From the NCBI RefSeq assembly GCF_021134715.1, contig NC_060028.1, positions 7,338,501 to 7,402,500 of the forward strand: a stretch of DNA of 64,000 nucleotides, read 5' to 3'. The position numbers and the translations under genes are program-made. The notes under the pieces were generated by a model, which worked only from the letters and a program-made list of their open reading frames with translations, made no database searches and was not told the DNA's origin. Position 1 is the first letter of the stretch. Every line of letters starts with the position of its first letter. Of the stretch, positions 19,854 through 43,098 are shown piece by piece. This stretch comes from Daphnia pulex. Lineage: Eukaryota; Arthropoda; Branchiopoda; Diplostraca; Daphniidae.

Positions 19854-20161
19854 TAGTTTCATTTTAAGTTGAGAGACGAATGAAAACAAATTTGAATAAA
19901 AACGAAATTTGACTGGTTTTAATTGCTTTCAAAACTGGCCAGACAGAGAAGATACGTTTTTTTTTTTTACTTCTCGGTTCGATTCAAAAGCCATTGCCAA
20001 TGACAATTTTGAAAATTACGGAGAAAAAGACGATAAAGTAAACCATCCGTAAACACTTGGTAAAAATTTCTACAAACAAAAAAGTTTAAACATGAAAAAT
20101 TAGAACTAGAAATTTCGTTAAAAAACGTATAATTGGCCAATTTTTAAGAGTTGAGTGGCTT
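19854..20161. repeat. Direct repeat, distal copy
   Basis: Diverged copy of 20705-21005 in the same orientation. Shared blocks include AAGTTGAGAGACGAAT, AAAATTACGGAGAAAAAG and GGCCAATTTTTAAGAGTTGA. It ends with the equivalent of the last few codons of HDDC2 plus its stop, then the similarity stops. Confidence 0.8.
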
Positions 20162-20704: not shown

Positions 20705-21005
20705 CAATTTCACTATTAAGTTGAGAGACGAATAAAACAATTTTGGATAAAAACGAAACTTGGTTGGTTTTTATTGGTTTGAAAACTGACCAGACAAAGA
20801 AAATGCGTTTTTTTACTTCTCGATTCGATTCAAAAGTCAATGACACTTTTAAAAATTACGGAGAAAAAGATTGAATGACTATAAATCATCCATCTTTGAA
20901 CACTTGGTTAAGATTTCTATCAAAAAAAGTTTAAAACATGAAAAATTGGAGCTAGAAATTTCAGTAAAGATCGATTTTGGCCAATTTTTAAGAGTTGAGT
21001 GGCTT
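20705..21005. repeat. Direct repeat, copy covering the HDDC2 3' end
   Basis: Partner of 19854-20161. This copy comprises the HDDC2 3' untranslated region and its last ~6 codons, so it is probably the original. Small indels separate the copies. Confidence 0.8.
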
Positions 21006-31013: not shown

Positions 31014-31970
31014 TCATTTGTTATATTTTATAAGGATCTTTCCTTGGTGGGCATTAATTTTTTTCCAAAGATCAACTTGCAAAGATTTACTTTCCATTAT
31101 GTCTGTGTATATCTGACCATCCAAATGATCCATTTCATGTTGCACAATTCTTGCAGCCCATCCTGTGGCATCCCATTCTGTTGGAGATCCATCATATTCA
31201 TATCCCTAGTCATAGATTTGAATGAATTGTTGATCATTAAACCAAAAACCAAAACATTTACCTTCACATGAACTGCTCTATATCTAGGCACTATTGCACT
31301 TATTCCTTTGAGGCTCTCACAAGCTTCAGGAAACAAAGTTTTCTTAAAATCCTTAACTTGCATCACTGGGTTAATAAATACCTGTAGATGTAAACAACTG
31401 TTTGAATCATAGTAAGGATAAATTTTTCCAATAATCTGCCTACTTTAAAAGGAGTTGGAACTATTTCACGTGTTTTGCAAGTTTCTGGGCCAAATTTTTC
31501 AACCAAAGAATCAGGGATCTCAATCATTATAATTCTCAATGGAATTCCAATTTGAGGTGCAGATATCCCTATTGCTTTATAGTGTTTCATCACTCCTCTG
31601 AGGACTAGAAGAATATTTTTAATGCGCTCAGAGCTAAGTTCATCCAGCGCCACTTCTGAGGACTTCAGTCTTAGGGTTGGATCTGTTTTCAAATGGGAAG
31701 TTTGAATTTATATCAAGAACTCAATATGATTATGGTTAATTGTACGAAATTACCACCAAGTTGACACACATGTTTGAAAGGAGGAGCCGGCCCTTTTGGA
31801 TACCATAGATCACGATACCTTATGAAATAAGATATTAATGTGCACACATGAATACGAAATCGTAATTTGGAACAACTTTACCATCTTTTGAATTTTTCTA
31901 AAGACGATAGATAACGAACTGATGTAGGCCCTGAAAATTTTTTATTCAATATCTTTATATGCCGAAACAT
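31014..31970 (-). CDS. PDF: Peptide deformylase, mitochondrial
   Basis: Metalloenzyme removing the formyl group from the initiator methionine of mitochondrially made proteins. 234 aa. Exons: 31970-31882, 31818-31754, 31682-31444, 31381-31262, 31205-31014. The basic N-terminus (MFRHIKILNKKFSGPTSVRY) suits a mitochondrial presequence. Motif 1 is GISAPQIGIPLRI (consensus GxGxAAxQ), motif 2 is PEACESLKG (consensus EGCxS; glycine is alanine here, the metal-binding cysteine is kept), and motif 3 is QHEMDHLDG with both metal histidines and the catalytic glutamate. VCQLGDPTLRL is the family start after the presequence and fixes the exon 2/3 junction. The gene is head to head with the left arm of the inverted-repeat element, whose edge begins 120 bp above its start codon. 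Confidence 0.95.
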
Positions 31971-32090
31971 TTTCAAAGTGTTGTTGTTTTTTTTTTTAGA
32001 AAAAATTCGTCTGCTAGATTCAAATGATCGATTCTCTCATCCGTGAAAATATCGATCATGTACTCGGTAATTTATTCCTTTTCTTTTATA

Positions 32091-32682
32091 ATGGGAACGA
32101 GTCCGGACATCAAGTAATTATTTTCACAAGCACTTGGGGTATTAAGTAAATAAGATCAATAATTATGGGTGTAAGTAATTTTTCTCTTAAGTAATTACGG
32201 AATTAAATAATAAAATTCGTGAGTAATTATTTTCTGTCAGCTAAGTAATTATGGTAGTAAGTAATACTGGCAACAAGTAATTTAGCTAACCAACACAAGT
32301 AATTCCCTTTTGCAAGTAAATAAATTCACAAGTAATTAAAGCCATAAGTAATTCAAGTCCCAAGTAATTATGTTCTTAAGCATTTTAATTAAAAAGTTAG
32401 TCATATTTAATTGTTTATATTCCGTACTAGAATGAATAATTAATTATGATATTTATTATTTTGTATTTAGAGAATTATAGTGATGCTGCACAAAAAGGAA
32501 AAACCACATTTATTAATTGCGTATTTGCGTACAAACTTTGTTGCGTTTGGCCCGTTTGCAGGTTTAAGAACGCACCTGGAAATTTCATCAACAGTTTCGC
32601 GTTGTCTGCTTGTCTGTTGTCTGCTTGTCAGTTTGTTTTTTCCAAAAGTCAGACAAGAGTTAATTGCTGGTGAATTGTGTTT
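32091..32682 (+). repeat. Left inverted arm
   Basis: From 32091 to ~32440 about a dozen AAGTAATT/AAGTAATTA motifs occur at 20-35 bp spacing. From ~32450 to 32682 the arm matches the reverse complement of ~39975-40190 with many identical blocks, for example TTTGTATTTAGAGAATTA, GCAGGTTTAAGAACGC and AAAAGTCAGACAAGAGTT. It ends just before the ATG of the PAF acetylhydrolase copy. Confidence 0.85.
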
Positions 32683-32687
32683 TGTAA

Positions 32688-33906
32688 ATGTATTCAACTT
32701 ACTTTGTTGTTATTGATTATAAAGGGAAGTATGTTGTTGGCTACACCAACAAAATGACTGGTGGACCCAGCAAGGAAGATGGTTGCTTTCTTCGAGTATA
32801 CTATCCTAGTCAAATAAAAGATGTATATGTAAGCGACCTTTTCTCAAATTGCTGCTGAACTTTTTTAGTTAATCTATTTACCTCTTTTCTCCAAAGGAAC
32901 ATTCTTCCCGTTGGGCAAGCTGGCTCCCCCACCAAAAATACGTAGAAGGTTACACCATAGTACTAGGAATGATTCCTTTCTTTGGCAAGAAGCTGATATC
33001 CTGGGCCTTTGGTGTGTAGCGAAATGAAGTACCTGTTTTTAACAGAAGGTTAAAGTCAACTAATTGTGATGTATGTGAGCCAGGAAATTCATACATCCCT
33101 ATAGAGGTAGATGCTGAGCTATGCAATGAACAAAGATTTCCTGTGTTGTATTTTCTCATGGTCTTACTGCGTGCCGTACTGCCTACTCAACTTTCTGCTC
33201 AGACATATCATCACATGGATTTATAGTGGCAGCTATTGAACACAGGTACTTACTTTAAACAAATTTGTTTTAAATAATGACATTCTCCACTAAATCTTAA
33301 CTTTTAAAGGGATGGCTCCGCTTGCATGACTTATAGTCTCGAAACGGAACAAAATAGTAAAGGAGGTTTAGTCGAAAGCTGGATCCCGTACAAACTAATG
33401 CAATTTGAAAAAGACGATATGCCATTCAGACAAGAACAATTGGAAATTCGTACTCGTGAATGTAGTCAATCTCTAGATTACTTAAGCTCAACGACGGTGC
33501 TGATATCAAACATGTTCTCCAAGCCACGGTGGATCTGGGAATGTTCAAAGAACGCTATTCATCGCCAAAAAGAAATTATGAGGTCACACATTAATGCTTT
33601 GGTTATTTGCAGGGAGTGATGGACTTGAGCATGACTGTGATTGCAGGCCATTCTTTCGGCTCTGCAACGCTGTTACGCACATTGGCCGCTGACAAACGCA
33701 TCAAGTAAGCTGATACTACCATATCATTATCGACAGTGATATAATAATCTTTCCTTTTTAAAATTACTCGCAGAATCGGAATGTCCATGGACGCCTGGAT
33801 GTGGCCGCTTAAAGACGAAATCAAATTGGCTAAAAGTGTCGAACAACCACTGGCCACAACACCACAGAATGTCTTCGTACATAATCAACATAATAGCAAC
33901 ACCAAT
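32688..33906 (+). pseudogene. Platelet-activating factor acetylhydrolase-like pseudogene
   Basis: Copy of a PAF acetylhydrolase (plasma/type II alpha-beta hydrolase family). Pieces with intact splice borders: 32688-32828, 32897-33245, 33310-33582, 33613-33704, 33774 onward. Recognisable parts are KYVVGYTNKM and GCFLRVYYPSQ near the start, then [29 protein letters not shown], the nucleophile elbow AGHSFGSATLL (33643-33675) and IGMSMDAWMWPLKDEI. The frame is broken: an in-frame TAG near 33017 and shifts near 33150 and 33500 separate segments that all match the family. After VEQPL (~33850) similarity fades into an unassigned open stretch that reaches ~34019. The serine elbow is intact, but no full-length product can be read. 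Sequencing error is an alternative for single breaks, less so for three. Confidence 0.75.
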
Positions 33907-34019
33907 CTACACTGCCGGATTTCAAGAAGAAGGAGCCGTCGCCCGCTCCGGCCCCTGTCGAAGCCAAGAAAGAGCCGGTGATGCATGGCCCGTTTGAGGA
34001 ACCCGTTTACATAGTGTAC

Positions 34020-35490
34020 ACGGTGCGTTATACATACATCTTGTCAGCTTCAGACCTTATTACTAAAATTTTTCTACTTTGTGTAATAACTACAGCTGAC
34101 TCGAATTCAGCTGAAAAACAACGTAGACATGTGTGCAATTGTCAGTCAAGCTTCATTCCCACTGTATTAATCTTGCTAGCCGACTATAATACATGTTTGC
34201 CATCAGCCCATGCCCGATAAAATTGACAGTCACATTATTAATTTGAACACTGACTCAACTTTGAAGCTGTTATTCGCTCCTAAATCTATTTAGCAGCTAG
34301 CCTATAGAGCTAAATGAAATATTGCATGTATCGTCCATGGTAGAACCGCGTGTTGTGTAATTCAAACAATTTTAAAGCTAGAAGCTAGCTTGTCTCACAG
34401 CTATACACGCATGACTGCCGAGACTAATTAGTAGGTATACGATAATCTTTTCTTAAATTTTGTAATGTCATATCTAGTATACAAATGTGTGCAAGCGTGT
34501 CTCTAATTGAAACCCGAGACGACATCAAACTTTGCATATTACTTTCCAACAGCGTCAAACTTCGAGTCCAACGATTTGCGTCTGTTCCTAAGATGAGAAA
34601 TCGATGCGAGGGAAAGATTCATTCTCATTAACATCCGGATAAATTAAATTTCGTGCGATTTACTTATTTTTACTGCTTACAAACGGACACACCTGTAAAA
34701 GAAAACGTATTTTTCTGTTTCGAAGTTACGCGCATTAAAAAAAAATTACCGAAAATAACAAATGTGCCTCTGTAATTATTGACAAGAGATTTAATTAACC
34801 AGTTACAGAGGAGCTAGTTGGGCTACGCTCACTTGAAGAATGAACACAATAGAATAGCCAACAGTCTGCTTGAGTAGATTATGTAGAAACCTGTAGATAC
34901 GTTGTTCGCATTGGTCTGGTGTTTTATACATGGATAGATAATGGATGGCGACCTTTACTCGCCCTTTCCTTTGATTTCCGCCAAAACATGTGTGTTATAC
35001 GAGCTGCTGATAGATTTTCTGGGTATGCTGGATGTCGAATTCCATTATAAGACCGCGTGAGATGAGATCATGTAATTGCAATAGTAAAGGTTTTTTAGAG
35101 AAAACTAGGCTAATAATGGGTGGGGACGTATTGTACACGCCAGTACATGCCCAATCATCAACGATTAGAGCAAACGTCGGTGTACTTGGTCCCAAATGAC
35201 ATTAGCGAGTAAACTCGCTAATTAAATTTCATTAGCGAAAGCACTGGCTAATAGATCATAATTTCAAGCCCTGTTTCACCACCATCAAAATTAAAATAGC
35301 GAATCATCTCGCTAATACAATTTCTTATTAGCGAGTGCATTCGCTAATTCATTCCCTCTTAGAATATGTGATTTACGTCCTCGATATGGCGTCATTCAAG
35401 GAAGCGAAATCGGTAATCGAATTGACTTGATGTCTTCAATTATAACTTTTAAGCGAATGGACTTTATTACATGTGTCGTTTGCGTTATAG
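34020..35490. other. Non-coding spacer inside the element
   Basis: No gene is recognised. The stretch is AT-rich with a group of short palindromes at 35201-35348. Any 5' exons of the CLCA copy should be here but were not found. Confidence 0.5.
35201..35348. repeat. Four 22-bp palindromes with ATTAGCGA...TCGCTAAT ends
   Basis: Units at 35201-35222, 35231-35252, 35295-35316 and 35327-35348. The first pairs ATTAGCGAGT perfectly with ACTCGCTAAT around AA; the others are near-perfect. They form two pairs with start-to-start distances of 30 and 32 bp, separated by ~42 bp. Confidence 0.9.
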
Positions 35491-37139
35491 TTTGAGACAG
35501 CCAGATCGTCTCTGATGCAATTCGTCAGCTTCTTTGTGGATCCCGTTTGGCTGTCCATCGACGTGTACTATGGTTACAATGTCCCCGAGTTACAATCGCC
35601 GATTGTGCTGATGGACTATGACACCAAAATCGAGTTGCTGGAGAAAATATCTGAGCTGAAATATGTCGGTAGCATTTCCGATAAATTTGGCGAAGCTCTA
35701 GAAAGAGCTCAAACGGTAAAAATACTTTATAATTTACGGGTTAGCAAATAATTAAGCTTCTTTTATGACGTAACAGAGAGCCTATAGCGGGCAGGACGTC
35801 ATTATTTTAACGGCAGTTCAAACATTTTCGAGTCTGAGTACTTGGGTCAAGTCGTACCAAGAAAACAAAGTCAACGCCCATCTCGTTCATTTTGGAGTGT
35901 CGACGACCAAGTTGGATATCGCCCAGCTGACTCGTTACGGCAGTTCGAATTTCGTGCCGAATGTCATCAACAACCGCGCAATGAGCGCCTACTCATGGCC
36001 ATTGGGCGGTCAATACCCTTCAGTCCGTTTATGAGAAAACGAGAACTCACCGAGCTAAAGTAAATTCAAATCAAATTTTAATTCTCTTATGAATCACGAA
36101 ACTCATTTTTGTTATTGATTTGATTAGATTTTTGAGCAGTCCATTATTCAGAATTCGTCCTCCGACGTCAACAAGACGGGTACTTTTTACCTGGACAGCC
36201 CAGCGTCCAGGTTGCTGGTTTCCCTCTACTACGACGACGAAAACGAAGCCATCAACGTCAGATCGTTCACCCTCACTCAACCGAACGGACTGCGAAACGA
36301 CACAACTGACTTAGCCATTATTAAAAAAGATTTCCTTACATTTACCTTGGAATCTGCGCTTGAACCACTTCCTCAGGTAAATTCGAATTTGAATTTCGAA
36401 AACTCTGAAATTCGCAGTGAAAACATGCCATTTTTTATTCATTAAATTTTTATTTTCTTTGCAGGGTCTTTGGCGATTTGAAATCATTTTTCAAAGAAGT
36501 TCCAGTCTGACGGATAAACGACTGGGCATCTGGGCTGAGTCTGCCAATTCGTCTCAAATCCAGCTGAAGACCTGGAACAGCGCCCTGGATAACCAACAGC
36601 CGTTAGATTTCACTAAAGCGCCGGTCGGCCTCTACGCCCAGCTGACGCAGAACAACAAGCCAATTCGAGGAGCCAATGTCACGGCCTTCGTCTACGTCAG
36701 CGACAGTGGTGGATCGACTTCCAGTTTGCTGGCCGAAATCCCTTTGATGGACGAAGGCATTTCAGGTATAACCCCAAAAAATTCAGCAGGTGAATTGTTA
36801 AATAATTTATACCCATAATTATTAGATGTGACTTCCGGTGACGGAATCTATTCCGGTTTCATGATCAAGCCGTCAAATTCGTCTTTCTCCTATTCCGTCT
36901 ACTATCGGGCGTACGGCGTCAACAGCCTGGCCGAAGTCGACAATGGTATAACCTTACCCAATTAATAACTATTCAAACTGAAAACTTAATTTCAAACTTG
37001 TCTTCGTGTAGGAGTGTACAGCCGACAACCGACGACCGGAAGCGTTATCCCGATGTCGGATCCTGTTCCGGCCGCCATCCAATTCAACCGTTTCGAATAC
37101 GGACCGACACCAATGGGGACGCATTCGACTGGACCTTGA
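35491..37139 (+). pseudogene. Calcium-activated chloride channel regulator (CLCA) 5'-truncated copy
   Basis: C-terminal part of a CLCA-family protein. Pieces: 35491-35715, 35777-36059, 36128-36376, 36465-36765, 36836-36945, 37012-37139. The first two cover part of the von Willebrand A domain (ISELKYVG...FGEALERAQ, then DVIILTA). The later ones cover the conserved beta-sandwich region, with WRFEIIFQRSS, GLYAQLTQNNKPIRGANVTA and DVTSGDGIYSG, which matches the CLCA 'DGIYSRYF' segment. Signal peptide, the N-terminal HExxH metalloprotease-like domain and the start of the vWA domain are missing. The frame slips once near 36030 at the end of the second piece; the following exons read well. Full CLCA proteins are secreted, self-cleaving modulators of anoctamin chloride channels. 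This copy cannot make one. Confidence 0.7.
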
Positions 37140-37384
37140 CTCTTATACGAACGTCCCAAATTCACACAGCGTCATAAATCAATCCACCAGCTAAAATGTG
37201 AACTTGGTCACGCGGATTGAACGAGACGGAACGTAGTTGACTCATGCTGCGTAAAATTATTTCTGGTTCCACAGCTCTTTCTATTCAATATTCATGGAAG
37301 GAATTGTTGCTTGCAAAGTTATACTGCTGAATAAAGAGACATATCATTCTCATATCGGCAAATGTCAATACCAATATTCATCAT

Positions 37385-37827
37385 TTCAACATTTGATGTA
37401 AGAATCATTTTCTTTGTGGTCAAACAGATTTTTCCAAAAAGGATCTGATGAATAAGCAGCGGCTTCTTGCCGGTTGACATCGCGAGGCCATCCACCTTCC
37501 TTGTGGAAAACTCCGTGGGCCTCGGTCGTAGCACAATCCGTATTGATCTAAATTTTCCAATACGTTTTGTATTAGCTAATGCTATTGACAAATTTAAATT
37601 CAATACTGACTTACATTAAGTGCTGAAACATCACAAGCTTGGCATTGGACTCCGATTTCTTTACTCCGCGCTATGGTAAACAAAGATGTCAATTGCGGAT
37701 CCGGGAAAATGTCGACAAATTGTGGCGGGTTGAAAACAGCGTCGGAGAAGTTACATTTCCTCCTGCTCAGTACTTTAACATGTCGACGTATAACACAGGT
37801 AAGATCCATCTTTGGAGGAACCGTCAT
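37385..37827 (-). pseudogene. Axonemal dynein intermediate chain 2 (DNAI2) N-terminal fragment
   Basis: Two consecutive exon-like pieces on -, 37827-37615 and 37547-37385, joined in phase 0 by a normal GT-AG intron. They match the start of DNAI2/IC69: RKCNFSDAVFNPP, VDIFPDPQL, IGVQCQACDVS, then ATTEAHGVFHKEGGWPRDVN (human GVNHVEGGWPKDVN). Reading ends at a stop after KENDSYIKC. Weak DNAI2-like similarity continues in another frame to ~37320. The WD40 beta-propeller, two thirds of the protein, is absent because the CLCA copy on the other strand follows directly. DNAI2 works only in outer dynein arms of motile cilia and flagella, so the fragment is a relic or captured piece. Confidence 0.7.
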
Positions 37828-38143
37828 ATTGATCGATCTTCGTCGATCGGTAGTTCGGGACTGACAATGTAACTGGCTCCACCTTTGCAATATGAACAAT
37901 TCCTGCGGACAAACAAGTACATGTCCTTGTTAGTCGCGCAGCGCAATTTCGCGTTATTCGAAAAATACAAAAAGGAAATACATTTTCTTGAGCGATTCGC
38001 GAAAAGTGCCATTTCCGTCTGCCACATGCAAGAAAAGTTTGAGGCAATGACGAATTAATCAGCCCAACGCCCTTGTTGTCTATACTCAATGTCTACTACA
38101 CTTTTATTGACCAACTTAGTTCTTTTTCTGAATTTGATATCGA

Positions 38144-38398
38144 TTGAAGAAACGAAATAGATTTTCGCCTAAGGTGACATCAGAGTTGAATCGATCAATC
38201 GGTCTAGACTTTGTCTTTGTCACAAAATCTTGGCTGATACCTGATATGTTCCAATTTGAAAATGTTGGATTTTCTAAAACGGTTGGGAACTATAAATATT
38301 TGTTATGTGCAGATTGTGAAATCGGTCCAATAGGGTGGCACTGTATAGACAGCCAAGAAAGCTGTGTGGCTGATCAACGTGTAAAACACATGGAATAA
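38144..38398 (+). pseudogene. RABIF/Mss4 C-terminal fragment
   Basis: The frame ending at 38398 contains WLIPDMFQFENVGFSKTVGN, then YKYLLCADCEIGPIGWHC and ADQRVKHME. This is the C-terminal half of RABIF/Mss4 (human DMFIFENVGFTKDVGN...CADCEIGPIGWHC), a zinc-binding chaperone for exocytic Rab GTPases. The second CxxC of the zinc site is present. The N-terminal half with the first CxxC is not found upstream. The frame has no ATG and opens after a stop at 38136; an AG acceptor near 38151 or 38163 could start an exon. It is either a fragment or a gene whose first exon I failed to see. Confidence 0.65.
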
Positions 38399-38665
38399 TG
38401 AATACAAAACCAGTTTATTTAATTACATTTTTCACATTCATAAAATTTGAAATATGGGAATGCTCTTTAACAGAAGAGGAACACAACAGGTACAATATTC
38501 AATATTATGAAATTTTCTGTTTTTCTTAATTATTGGGTATGACAAGCATTTATACATGACAAATGGAACTTCAAAATATCTCTATATTCGGTCTGACATA
38601 GTTATAAATAAATGCGAATGTTGCAACGCTTACGCTAAGTGCAACAACCTTCGCAGTTTGGGATC

Positions 38666-39890
38666 TTAAATTTCTGAATCCAAAGGAGTCCAACGTTGAA
38701 TAGCCGCTTTTGTATGTTTCCCTTGTAAAGCAGCCTTTCTCTGTTCCATTCTCCTTTTCCTCTCTTCGTCCTCTTCCTTTATCTTACGAATACTACAACA
38801 AGATGAAACATTAATGTCATTCAGGAAATATCAGCAGAAACTTAATGCTTAAGATACTTTTCAGCGTGCATCTCTCGGACAACTGTTTCCATTACATCTG
38901 GTGGATAGGTTCACATCAACTTTTCTGTTTCAGTACTATCAAATGGTAGATTATCAGGGACCTAAGATAAAACTGTAAGAACATTAATCGAAAAAGAGCT
39001 TATTAAAAAAATAGTACGTTGGAGAGCATTTGATGTAGAAGCGGCATCTCGCACGGTGTCAAGAAAATATCACTTGCTCTATGCAACACGACGACAGCAG
39101 ATAGATACATAGAGGTCCATGGATGTGAGAACATTAATACATCAAACAATCTTACGACAGCTTCGTAATCGTTGAGAACATGGCCAAACCAAGTAATCGC
39201 CCACGGAAGGCAGAAAATTGTCCCTAGCTTTGACCTAGAATTATAACAGGTTATTCAAATTTTAAAGAGAATCTTTCTCTTTTTTTTTAGGGGGGGGGAG
39301 AGGGGTTTCAAATACCTCATCAAATAATTGTACAAATCACGATTTTCATTTTTGACTAGTACATACACTAAGTTAAGAATTTCCATTGTAGATAGGCTCC
39401 ATATCTGGTCCCATAAACAGTTGGAAATGTGATTGGGAAAGTCTGCATAACACACTGTAACTTTTATCTTCTCCTAAAACAAGCAACAGTGTGATGGCAA
39501 TATCGTGAAAACCCTGTGCATGGAAGCATAATAATTGTAAGAGGATCATCTTCGTAATTTAATTTTGCTATAACCTGATAGTAATGGAGACCTTCATTTG
39601 CTATCAGAACTCTTATTATCAGCTCTGTGAATTTTACTTGGAGGTCTGCTTGAATATTTTCATTAATACCTAGGCGGATAATAAAATTTTAAGAATAGAA
39701 AATATACATAAAAGAAATATTATTGCTACCTGGAGGGAAGCATTTTAAAATTCTTTGACATCCAATACCACCTGGTTGTAGTACTGATGATGCTTTATCT
39801 CTTCTGATGAAACTCCTGTTTCCTTTAACTGGTGTAACAATTTGATTCTTAACAAATAGACAGAATAAACAAACATTTTTACACAAATGT
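38666..39890 (-). pseudogene. TBC1D20-like Rab GTPase-activating protein pseudogene
   Basis: Copy of TBC1D20, the RAB1/RAB18 GAP of the ER/Golgi. Matching segments in order on - are HHQYYNQVVLDV then ILKCFPPG (~39840-39735), RVLIANEGLHYYQ with GFHDIAITLLLVLGE (human HYYQGYHDI), FCLPWAITWFGHVLNDYEAV (39238-39012), and a charged tail ending WTPLDSEI at 38666. Frame slips occur in the first segment and near 39400, and an in-frame TGA lies near 38911. The tail lacks the C-terminal transmembrane helix of the family. Introns are kept. It opens just inside the right arm of the element. Confidence 0.75.
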
Positions 39891-39974
39891 TAACTTACGT
39901 TTACTTATAAAGAAAGAAAATATGTTACCCGAGACAACATATTTTTCACAAACAACGCATATTTTGACTTTTGA

Positions 39975-40595
39975 GCCTCAATTAACCAGCAAAACTCTTG
40001 TCTGACTTTTGGAAAAAAACAAACTGACAAGTGACAAGCAGACAACTCGAAACTGTTGATGTAATTTCCAGGCGCGTTCTTAAACCTGCAAACGCGTAAA
40101 AGTTTGTACGCAACCTGAACCTCCTGAGTCCTGAATACGCAATAACGCAGTCAATAAATGACGTTTCACTTTAATTCTCTAAATACAAAATAATAAAAGT
40201 GTTTACACCGTATAAATACATAAGAGAATAATTACTTAAGAAAATAGTTACTTGTGAGAATAATTACTTAAGAAAATAATTTCTTGAGAGAACAATTACT
40301 TAAGAATATAATTACTTAAGTCGTTGCTAGTGACTTACGAACAATTGTACTAATAGAACCTATTATTTGTGAACATAATTTTAATTACTGGTTACCATAA
40401 TTACTAGCGAGTATTTGACTAAATACACGTTGCATGAATTACTTAAAGCCCGAATTATTAAAAATTTTAAATACAACAGTCCATAATTACTTAAGAACAA
40501 AAATACTTGTGTCCTTAATTTCAATAAAACAAAATTTTGAAAGAGCTTGATACCATATTTACTAGTGAAAATAATTACTTGTATCCGGATCCCAT
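39975..40595 (-). repeat. Right inverted arm
   Basis: Reverse-complement counterpart of 32091-32682. The inner ~220 bp align along their length with substitutions and a few indels. The outer ~390 bp carry AATTACTTAAG-type motifs, the reverse complement of those in the left arm. It ends at TATCCGGATCCCAT. Confidence 0.85.
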
Positions 40596-43098
40596 GGGAA
40601 CACCTTTTTTGTGGTTTCAGGCTAAAAAAATTCCAAACAACAACAAAGGAACTGATTGACTGATGGATTTATAATTATTTTTAGCTTGAAGGTAGTCTTC
40701 CTCAGCAACATTTCCTCTTGGTATTTACAACACTAAAAGAAAAAGGAACGACGACCTCCAAACCTCTCCCCCCCCCCCTCTTTCGAACCCTTCGGCTTCT
40801 CTCAACAGTCTTGCAGGGCGATAAAAAATAATCGTAGTAATGGCTGCCATGTGTGTGTATGTATAACTTTAAGAGTAAATCACGTGCTAAAAATTGTAAC
40901 TCCTTAAATTGAAGCGGGTATTTAACGATTCCTTTGATGCGCAACCACCGCACGGCTGTTTATGGTGAATTGGACTCTTCGTTCGTCGTTTTAACTTGAC
41001 CCACATGTTTTTCCTTTTTCCGGTCGGTTTGGTTTTTCTCGATCGCGAGAGCATTCATCAACTAGCAGTCTACATGCGGGCTGCTGTTTCAATCATTATC
41101 GTTATATATATTTGTACAAACGGAAACAAATTCTTTATAGTTATATATCCCAGCCAAAGCGCTTTCTCTCTACAGATGAATAAGCGGTGTCGAATAAAAT
41201 TCAGTTACGAAAAATTGCGGTGAAAAGATATTCGAGAACAACTTTTCGAGAAGGGGAGAAAAAAGAATCTTTTGATTTTCTTTTTTTTTTCGACACAAAG
41301 ATGTCGGGTCTATTGAAGCAACAGCGATCTTGTGAATAGCCAAGCATTCCCCCTCCTTGTGCTAACAGCGTGCGTCACGGGTAAAATATATCGCCTGAAG
41401 GAAAAAAGGCCGCCATTTCGAAATTTCGACCAATGGCCAACAAGGAAAGGCGGGTTGAAGCCAGCGCCACATTGATAGCTTTCGAGGCCTTTTTTTCTTT
41501 CTTTCTTTACCAGCAGCAGCTAAAAAGCCCATTTTTTCGAAAGGGAGGAGAAGAAGAAAAAGTAGGGGTTGGGAACGAGGAAGAAGAAGAAGTAGTAGAA
41601 AACTCTGCTTGTTCGACAGTTGCTTCGTCGTCATCGTCGGCCCTAGACGGCCCCAATTTCTAGGGAGATTTTCTCTTCATTTTCTTTCTTTCTCTTTGGC
41701 GCCCATCGGTTTTCGTGGCCCACTTTTTCTTAGTGACGCTCAGTCCGAGCAGCAAGAAGCAACATGCTGCCAACAACTCTTCATGCAGCTGTGAAAATCT
41801 CTTCAAGTCTCGCCACCACTTGTTGCCGGGTGATTGTGTGTCTGGTCCATGTTAACTTGATTTGGCGACCGAACTGAAAATTGTTGGTTGATAATTTCAT
41901 GACTAGATCCACACTCATCCAGTGACACAGTTGGTAATTCGTCCGCTTTTCATTTTCTGTACTTGTCTAGCTAAATTAGTATTCTTTTTTTATTGTAACT
42001 GGTTGGAAAAATACAAGGAGAACTTGTTTGAAACAGACACACAAAAAAGAGAGAGAGAGTCGAGTTTTTGTTGCACAAAGAGAGGCGTGCGCGCACAAGT
42101 TTCGAAGGCCAGAAAGAAGCGGGAGAAGGGAGAAGTAGGAACGGCGTCTTCCTCAAGGCGCTGTCCTTGAGAAAGCTTACCATTTTTTAATACATGTATA
42201 CACAAGACGCTGCTGCTCCATCTGCTTACTGTCTTAGGAAAATATTTCGTGTTTCTACCCAAGCTTTTTTTCTATCATGGCCACCTGTTATTTCTCCCCC
42301 CTCTACTTTTTTAAAAGCTAATTTCAATATTCTATCACGAAGATCTACCTGTTCTCCCCCTCTAAGCTCTTTGTTCGTTCCTTAAAGAAAAACCGTTTTT
42401 CAACTTCAAAAAATGGGCAAGGGGTTGGTGTTTTCCCTTTTAGAAAGCATGGGCCTTTTCTTCAATTCCCCCCTACAAAAAGGCCTAAAGGGATGTATAT
42501 AATTTTCTATAGAGAAGGCCATGAAAAGAAATGAAAAAAAGCCTGAGGGGAGTTCCTCAAAAGATTGTTCTCTTTTGTGGAGCAAGGGGAGGGGGGATGA
42601 TGACGCCCAAGCCGGATACATACCTGAGGAAACTACAGGGGACACAAGTTCCTTTGTTCTCATAGATTCTTGCTTGACGGCCTAAATATAAGATTTTCTC
42701 GAATAGATAATAATAACAAAAAAATAAAAACAGGTTTTTCAAAGTGGAGGAATACTCCATCACGATTATACGGAAAGGTCAACCACGTTCCTTTACTTTA
42801 TACAACATGTCGTGCAACTCTGGAAGGGATGACACGAATTGCTCACCCCACTTAAAAAACCACCGCGTCGGTATTTTTCTTTTAGGCTTTTTCGAAGAAA
42901 AAAATGAGTAGAATTCGTGCATCCGTGAAATGGATGATGATTGAAGAAGAAAGATGGTTAGATTACAACCACGACAGTCCTTTACACTGCTGACTTAATA
43001 TCAAAAGATTGAAACGTCACATCTAAAGTTTCAAATTCTTTTTGTTTTGCTCAACGGAAGAAAAAATAATAAACAAGCAGAGAAAATATAATGAAAAC
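40596..43098. other. Non-coding region between the element and MTMR9
   Basis: No exon is supported. It has purine-rich and GA microsatellite-like runs (42040-42060), C/T tracts, and ordinary AT-rich DNA. Longer open frames here are compositionally simple and unlike any family I know. Confidence 0.5.

What the first reader, a model, noticed from the sequence alone, without database searches (positions are those of the whole stretch)
32091..40595. 8.5 kb foldback-like element holding five unrelated host gene copies
Two ~0.6 kb inverted arms with matching ends (ATGGGA...CCGGA then AAGTAATTATTTTCAC) face each other. Between them lie partial or broken, intron-bearing copies of PAF acetylhydrolase, CLCA, DNAI2, RABIF and TBC1D20 on both strands. 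Every gene recognised outside the arms is intact; every gene inside is damaged or partial. That pattern fits a DNA element that captures genomic segments (Pack-type or foldback) better than ordinary gene loss. No transposase was seen, so it would be non-autonomous.
Basis: partly seen in the sequence, partly recalled or inferred. Interest (0 to 1): 0.85.

Follow-up and report, generated by a model that had tools for sequence, protein, structure and literature searches.

The report
Foldback transposon packed with gene pieces
This is very probably an 8.5 kb "jumping" DNA element of an animal that carries broken, intron-bearing pieces of several ordinary host genes between two mirror-image ends; the kind is known, but so much cargo from several genes looks unusual for an animal.

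Summary
Two ~0.6 kb inverted arms (32099-32690, 39961-40593) face each other. Each has a terminal TCCGGA palindrome, 13 copies of a CAAGTAATTA core in a partly 16-bp rhythm, and a unique inner domain (92.5% identical). Inside are damaged or partial, intron-bearing pieces of PAF acetylhydrolase, a CLCA-like protein (weakly supported), DNAI2, RABIF/Mss4 and TBC1D20. Neighbouring genes read open in the exons examined. No Pfam transposase match occurs in 43 of 43 ORFs of 60 aa or more.

Best reading: a non-autonomous, Pack-type foldback DNA transposon, most like the Phantom/Muta branch of Mutator-like elements, moved in trans. The superfamily is unproven, because 8-bp duplications also fit P, hAT and Merlin. 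The five genes may come from about three captured blocks. Not testable here: other copies, parental genes, an empty site, misassembly, host species. A known kind; ~7 kb of multi-gene cargo is large for what I found reported from animals.

The parts
32091..32098 (.). left copy of the 8-bp direct repeat ATGGGAAC (putative target-site duplication)
   Evidence: exact match to 40594-40601; only two + strand copies in 64 kb
32099..32451 (+). left arm, outer domain: terminal GAGTCCGGAC, then 13 copies of the CAAGTAATTA core (at most 2 mismatches), partly at 16-bp spacing
   Evidence: TRF array 32313-32370, period 16
32452..32690 (+). left arm, inner unique domain (92.5% identical to the right arm over 201 aligned bases)
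32688..33861 (+). PAF acetylhydrolase (PAF-AH_p_II) gene copy, 5' part, introns kept, 1 stop and 2 frameshifts, 3' end missing
33897..34022 (+). unassigned K/P-rich open stretch (STLPDFKKKEPSP...); possible further captured exon
   Evidence: no match in Pfam, PDB or NCBIfam
35491..37121 (+). CLCA-like gene copy, central exons (VWA-like region onward), introns kept, one frameshift near 36022, both ends missing; family assignment weak
   Evidence: nothing relevant in PDB
37389..37809 (-). DNAI2 gene copy, first two coding exons with one intron of about 67 bp
38210..38395 (+). RABIF/Mss4 gene copy, C-terminal coding part; N-terminal part (about 37880-38209) unreadable or degraded
38574..39843 (-). 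TBC1D20 gene copy, TBC domain to C-terminus, introns kept, 1 stop and 3 frameshifts, 5' end missing
39961..40197 (-). right arm, inner unique domain
40198..40593 (-). right arm, outer domain: 13 CAAGTAATTA cores, ending in ATCCGGATCCC
   Evidence: (TRF 40212-40320, period 16/32)
40594..40601 (.). right copy of the 8-bp direct repeat ATGGGAAC

Best explanation
This is one insertion of a non-autonomous foldback-type DNA transposon that has taken up genomic (DNA-level, intron-bearing) copies of host gene segments. Inferred mechanism: a transposase from an autonomous relative elsewhere binds the arrayed subrepeats and terminal palindromes, cuts the element out and inserts it at a staggered 8-bp cut, which gives the ATGGGAAC duplication (duplication shown, enzyme inferred). 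The cargo was acquired when a broken or replicating element was repaired with foreign templates (gap filling or template switching; inferred), probably in at least three pieces: PAFAH 5' part; CLCA middle; and DNAI2 5' part-RABIF-TBC1D20 3' part, which may be one contiguous stretch. The copies then decayed. Affiliation: most probably a Phantom/Muta-like member of the Mutator superfamily (about 55%); P, hAT or Merlin remain possible.
For: Exact 8-bp direct repeat just outside both ends, rare by chance. Inverted arms with matching termini, tandem subrepeats (13 cores per arm; 500 shuffles per arm gave means of 0.75 and 0.68, maxima 3 and 4) and a unique inner domain. Among the 25 of 47 inverted pairs shown, the only one inside a single arm is 27 nt at 81% and not at that arm's ends, so the arms do not look like two independent MITEs. 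Gene pieces lie on both strands, are cut off at inner limits and keep introns at GT/AG-like borders. Neighbouring PDF and myotubularin-like exons read open. No Pfam transposase match in 43 of 43 ORFs (at E up to 1; at E up to 0.1). Muta1 of Aedes has the same plan: 8-9 bp duplication, terminal palindrome, 12-bp subterminal repeats with 3-4 bp spacers, and about 20% of its derivatives carry host gene sequence.
Against: Only one copy was seen; repetition in the genome, the empty site and the parental genes are untested (0 hits). 'Copies' is inferred from damage and truncation, not from a found parent. The arms differ far more by indels than the cargo: if arms had been identical at insertion and all had decayed alike, the readable cargo should show 71 indel events (about 48 frame-breaking) and 6.6 stops; 6 frameshifts and 2 stops were seen (P about 4e-14 and 0.04). 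So either the arms were unequal at insertion, or the cargo is younger, or the arms are indel-prone; unreadable cargo was left out, so the lesion count is a lower bound. An animal survey found no Pack-TIR in the insect and bird reference genomes it examined and no Pack-MULE in any reference genome, which lowers the prior. No transposase was found, so the superfamily is judged from form only.
Confidence: 0.8

Rival explanations
1. Two separate insertions of one repeat family happen to lie in opposite orientation around a stretch of decaying genes or pseudogenes; nothing moved as a unit.
For: Only one locus is available; the arms differ by many indels.
Against: The exact 8-bp direct repeat joins the two outer ends; no arm shows an inverted partner at its own inner end among the 25 of 47 pairs shown; the recognised genes inside are truncated or damaged while the neighbours examined are open.
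Confidence: 0.08
2. Composite element: two full foldback elements once flanked one contiguous genomic segment and moved it together, later losing their inner arms.
For: Large composite units between foldbacks are reported in Drosophila (Ising TE; passage in PMC6431247).
Against: Each side has a single arm; the cargo genes are cut at several inner places (PAFAH 3', CLCA both ends, DNAI2 3', TBC1D20 5'), not only at the arms.
Confidence: 0.06
3. Assembly chimera: short reads joined the ends of one element to the interior of another.
For: Inverted repeats invite misassembly; no reads were available.
Against: The arms are too diverged to be confused easily (inner 92.5%, outer 79% with 25 gap events), and the matching 8-bp repeat ties both ends to one insertion. 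A swapped interior is not excluded.
Confidence: 0.06

Closest known systems
Muta1 and its non-autonomous derivatives, Aedes aegypti (Mutator superfamily; group to be called Phantom) - PMC5225508, PMC6446971
   Same: 8-9 bp duplication, long arms of a terminal palindrome plus subterminal tandem repeats with spacers, called a type 2 foldback; about 20% of derivatives carry host gene sequence. Phantom group: 8-10 bp duplication where indicated, arms 18-613 bp or none, hosts include Crustacea.
   Different: Muta1 arms are 145 bp; the example given carries a 276-bp gene fragment; here arms of about 0.6 kb and about 7.3 kb of cargo from several genes. Sequence relatedness not tested.
Tm1 foldback/Mutator family of root-knot nematodes - PMC3169594
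   Same: Arms with variable numbers of ~14-bp tandem repeats; the two arms of one element differ (average 93.15% identical in the aligned parts), close to the 92.5% of the inner domain here.
   Different: 9-bp duplication; non-inverted terminal motifs; different repeat unit.
Pack-TIRs of animals and Ssk-FB4 of Drosophila - PMC8277862
   Same: Host sequence between terminal inverted repeats; Ssk-FB4 lies in a foldback, includes introns, and the authors call it a Pack-MULE.
   Different: Median captured size 224 bp; no Pack-MULE in the reference genomes examined; Ssk-FB4 holds one gene.
Tetris foldback of Drosophila virilis - PMC4079207
   Same: Composite arms with tandem repeats, 8-9 bp duplication in complete copies, non-autonomous, assigned to Mutator by form.
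   Different: ~220-bp repeats; no gene cargo in the passages read.
TU elements of sea urchin (recalled; only cited as a foldback)
   Same: From memory: 15-bp tandem outer domain, unique inner domain, 8-bp duplication.
   Different: Not compared by sequence.

Membership tests
Foldback-type DNA transposon | long inverted arms with internal tandem repeats | tested here: met
Foldback-type DNA transposon | target-site duplication at the outer ends | tested here: met
   ATGGGAAC exact on both sides (one insertion only)
Foldback-type DNA transposon | several copies at different sites | not testable with these tools
   no host genome held; 0 hits, in collections not expected to hold the host
Pack-type element (Pack-TIR / Pack-MULE) | host gene sequence between the arms | tested here: met
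   CLCA weakly
Pack-type element (Pack-TIR / Pack-MULE) | parental copies elsewhere in the genome, free of the arms | not testable with these tools
Mutator superfamily, Phantom group | 8-10 bp duplication with arms of tens to hundreds of bp | tested here: met
   not specific, other superfamilies also give 8 bp (recalled)
Mutator superfamily, Phantom group | MULE transposase in the element or in an autonomous partner with the same ends | tested here: inconclusive
   none in the element (43 of 43 ORFs); a partner could not be searched for
Mutator superfamily, arthropod MULEs | first three terminal bases mostly G/C (PMC13359780, passage) | tested here: inconclusive
   ends GAG (left) and GGG (right); the left one has an A
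Galileo / P superfamily foldback | 7-bp (Galileo, recalled) or 8-bp (P, recalled) duplication and P-type transposase | tested here: inconclusive
   8 bp fits P; no transposase

The most novel reading that the evidence does not exclude
An animal foldback (Phantom-type Mutator-like) element that carries over 7 kb of intron-bearing host DNA from at least three loci and five genes on both strands: multi-gene shuffling in an animal on a scale that, in what I read, is otherwise described for plant elements and Helitrons.
Probability: 0.45. Interest if true: 0.6.

Novelty: new variant of a known kind. Interest (0 to 1): 0.45.

Why it matters
Gene capture by cut-and-paste transposons is well known in plants; in the animal survey that I read the captured pieces are short (median 224 bp). 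A single animal element holding pieces of five genes would show that large, multi-source capture also happens there, and its junctions would let one test the gap-filling and fork-switching models directly.

Tried and rejected
Own-genome search: no genome held. Exact arm and empty-site patterns: 0 hits in viral contigs (5 of 8 scans used) and genome contigs. Megablast of 31591-41100 against plasmids: no match. These collections are not expected to hold an animal genome, so the misses say little. Rfam at gathering score: 0 matches; tRNAs: none.

A second reading, in which the palindromes GTCCGGAC / ATCCGGAT are the duplication, is poorer: 6 of 8 bases, and a palindrome cannot be told from an inverted end. 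Serial capture judged by decay (CLCA looks younger) was considered and dropped: 1 lesion in 430 codons against 7 in 645 (PAFAH plus TBC1D20) is a small difference; no test was run. The open stretch at 33897-34022 found no relative. The CLCA pieces gave nothing relevant in PDB. Several of the 43 ORFs gave weak Pfam matches to unrelated families (for example E 0.014 to 0.17), all below the curated cut-offs; I treat them as chance.

Papers: PMC8277862 outline, passages and sections 7, 8, 10; PMC3169594 abstract and sections 5, 9 and 11 (part 1 of 2); PMC5225508 section 7 and passages; PMC4079207, PMC6431247, PMC2884549, PMC13359780, PMC6446971 passages only. Searches: listings, several of them capped (for example 20 of 76, 15 of 405, 20 of 55). 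In what they listed I saw no multi-gene Pack element of a crustacean; this is not proof of absence.

Full report
Observation. The two arms are real and far beyond chance. Each has three layers. At the tip is a palindrome (GTCCGGAC left, ATCCGGAT right). Then comes an outer domain in which the core CAAGTAATTA recurs 13 times per arm with at most two mismatches (500 shuffles per arm: means 0.75 and 0.68, maxima 3 and 4), partly in an exact 16-bp rhythm. Innermost is a unique domain, 186 of 201 aligned bases identical between arms, with 9 gap events (slices 32452-32690 and 39961-40197). In 14 units cut by 16-bp register (the register was chosen by the core, so this leans towards it), positions 1-9, 13 and 14 are mostly conserved and positions 10-12 and 15-16 vary. 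That would fit a binding core with a spacer.

The unit moved as one. Directly outside the arms lies the same 8-mer, ATGGGAAC, at 32091-32098 and 40594-40601. It occurs nowhere else on the + strand of the window and once on the - strand. Random point pairs in the window match this well in 167 of 200,000 draws at matched offsets, and in 187 and 498 of 60,000 draws under looser rules; I estimate that about a tenth of the draws were void but counted. The element is therefore 32099-40593, 8495 bp. It lies about 0.4 kb from an open exon stretch of a peptide deformylase gene on the left, with an HMGL-like (HMGCL) gene beyond, and about 2.5 kb from a myotubularin-like gene on the right; the finer label MTMR6-9 rests on a sub-cut-off match. 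Those genes read open in the exons looked at.

Cargo. Four genes are confirmed by sequence comparison: PAF acetylhydrolase, DNAI2, RABIF/Mss4 and TBC1D20 (weak TBC matches). The CLCA assignment is weaker (no help). All pieces are partial: PAFAH lacks its 3' end, CLCA both ends, DNAI2 all after two coding exons, RABIF a readable N-terminus, TBC1D20 its 5' end. Frame damage counted by eye is 2 stops and 6 frameshifts in 1254 readable codons. Short introns remain at GT/AG-like borders, so capture was of genomic DNA, not of mRNA. DNAI2 and RABIF appear to lie head to head (the RABIF start is not readable), and RABIF and TBC1D20 lie tail to tail 0.2 kb apart, as neighbours in a compact genome would. 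Three captured blocks are thus enough, and 'five unrelated captures' is not shown. A 1.6 kb stretch (about 33880-35490) stays unassigned; it holds an open exon without known relatives and a small cluster of palindromic repeats.

No engine inside. None of the 43 ORFs of 60 aa or more overlapping 32000-40700 matches a transposase family in Pfam, so the element would have to be moved in trans.

Age. If both arms had been identical at insertion and cargo and arms had decayed alike, the readable cargo should show about 6.6 new stops and 71 indel events; 2 stops and 6 frameshifts were seen. Unreadable parts were left out, so the count is a lower bound. Still, the cargo looks less worn than the arms. 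In Tm1, the two arms of one element average only 93.15% identity, so unequal arms from the start are a simple answer; capture into an already old element is another.

What it works like and what it is. By plan it works like a Pack-type foldback. The closest described plan is Muta1 of Aedes, an active Mutator-like element with 8-9 bp duplications, terminal palindrome and spaced subterminal repeats, about 20% of whose derivatives carry host sequence. Muta elements fall in the Phantom group, whose hosts include crustaceans, and the Mutator representatives reported from Daphnia pulex were all Phantom-like. That this host is a Daphnia is only a guess. Membership is not proven: no transposase, no second copy, and an 8-bp duplication also fits P, hAT and Merlin (recalled), three superfamilies that also occur in D. 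pulex.

Novelty. Gene capture between inverted repeats is known in animals, but in the survey that I read the captured pieces are small (median 224 bp), there was no Pack-MULE in its reference genomes and no Pack-TIR at all in its birds and insects; its one fly family, Ssk-FB4, is called a Pack-MULE and holds one gene. About 7.3 kb from five genes is large; a review notes that none of the first plant Pack-MULEs exceeded 7 kb (passage). I call it a new variant of a known kind, with the caveat that host, parents and further copies are unseen.

Noticed in passing
19857-20161 and 20708-21005: Two ~300-bp direct repeats, 29% GC, without a long open frame, 81% identical, about 550 bp apart; perhaps two copies of a short interspersed or MITE-like repeat.
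   Followed up: partly
35194-35356: Cluster of four imperfect 37-nt units, each a small palindrome (ATTAGCGAGT..ACTCGCTAAT), inside the unassigned part of the cargo; possibly a nested small repeat.
   Followed up: partly
33897-34022: Open K/P-rich stretch followed by a GT, with no match in Pfam, PDB or NCBIfam; may be a sixth captured exon.
   Followed up: partly
32099-32112 and 40580-40593: The tips carry GTCCGGAC and ATCCGGAT; from recall, GTCCGGAC resembles the target consensus of the Drosophila P element. Probably coincidence, but worth a look when the transposase is found.
   Followed up: no
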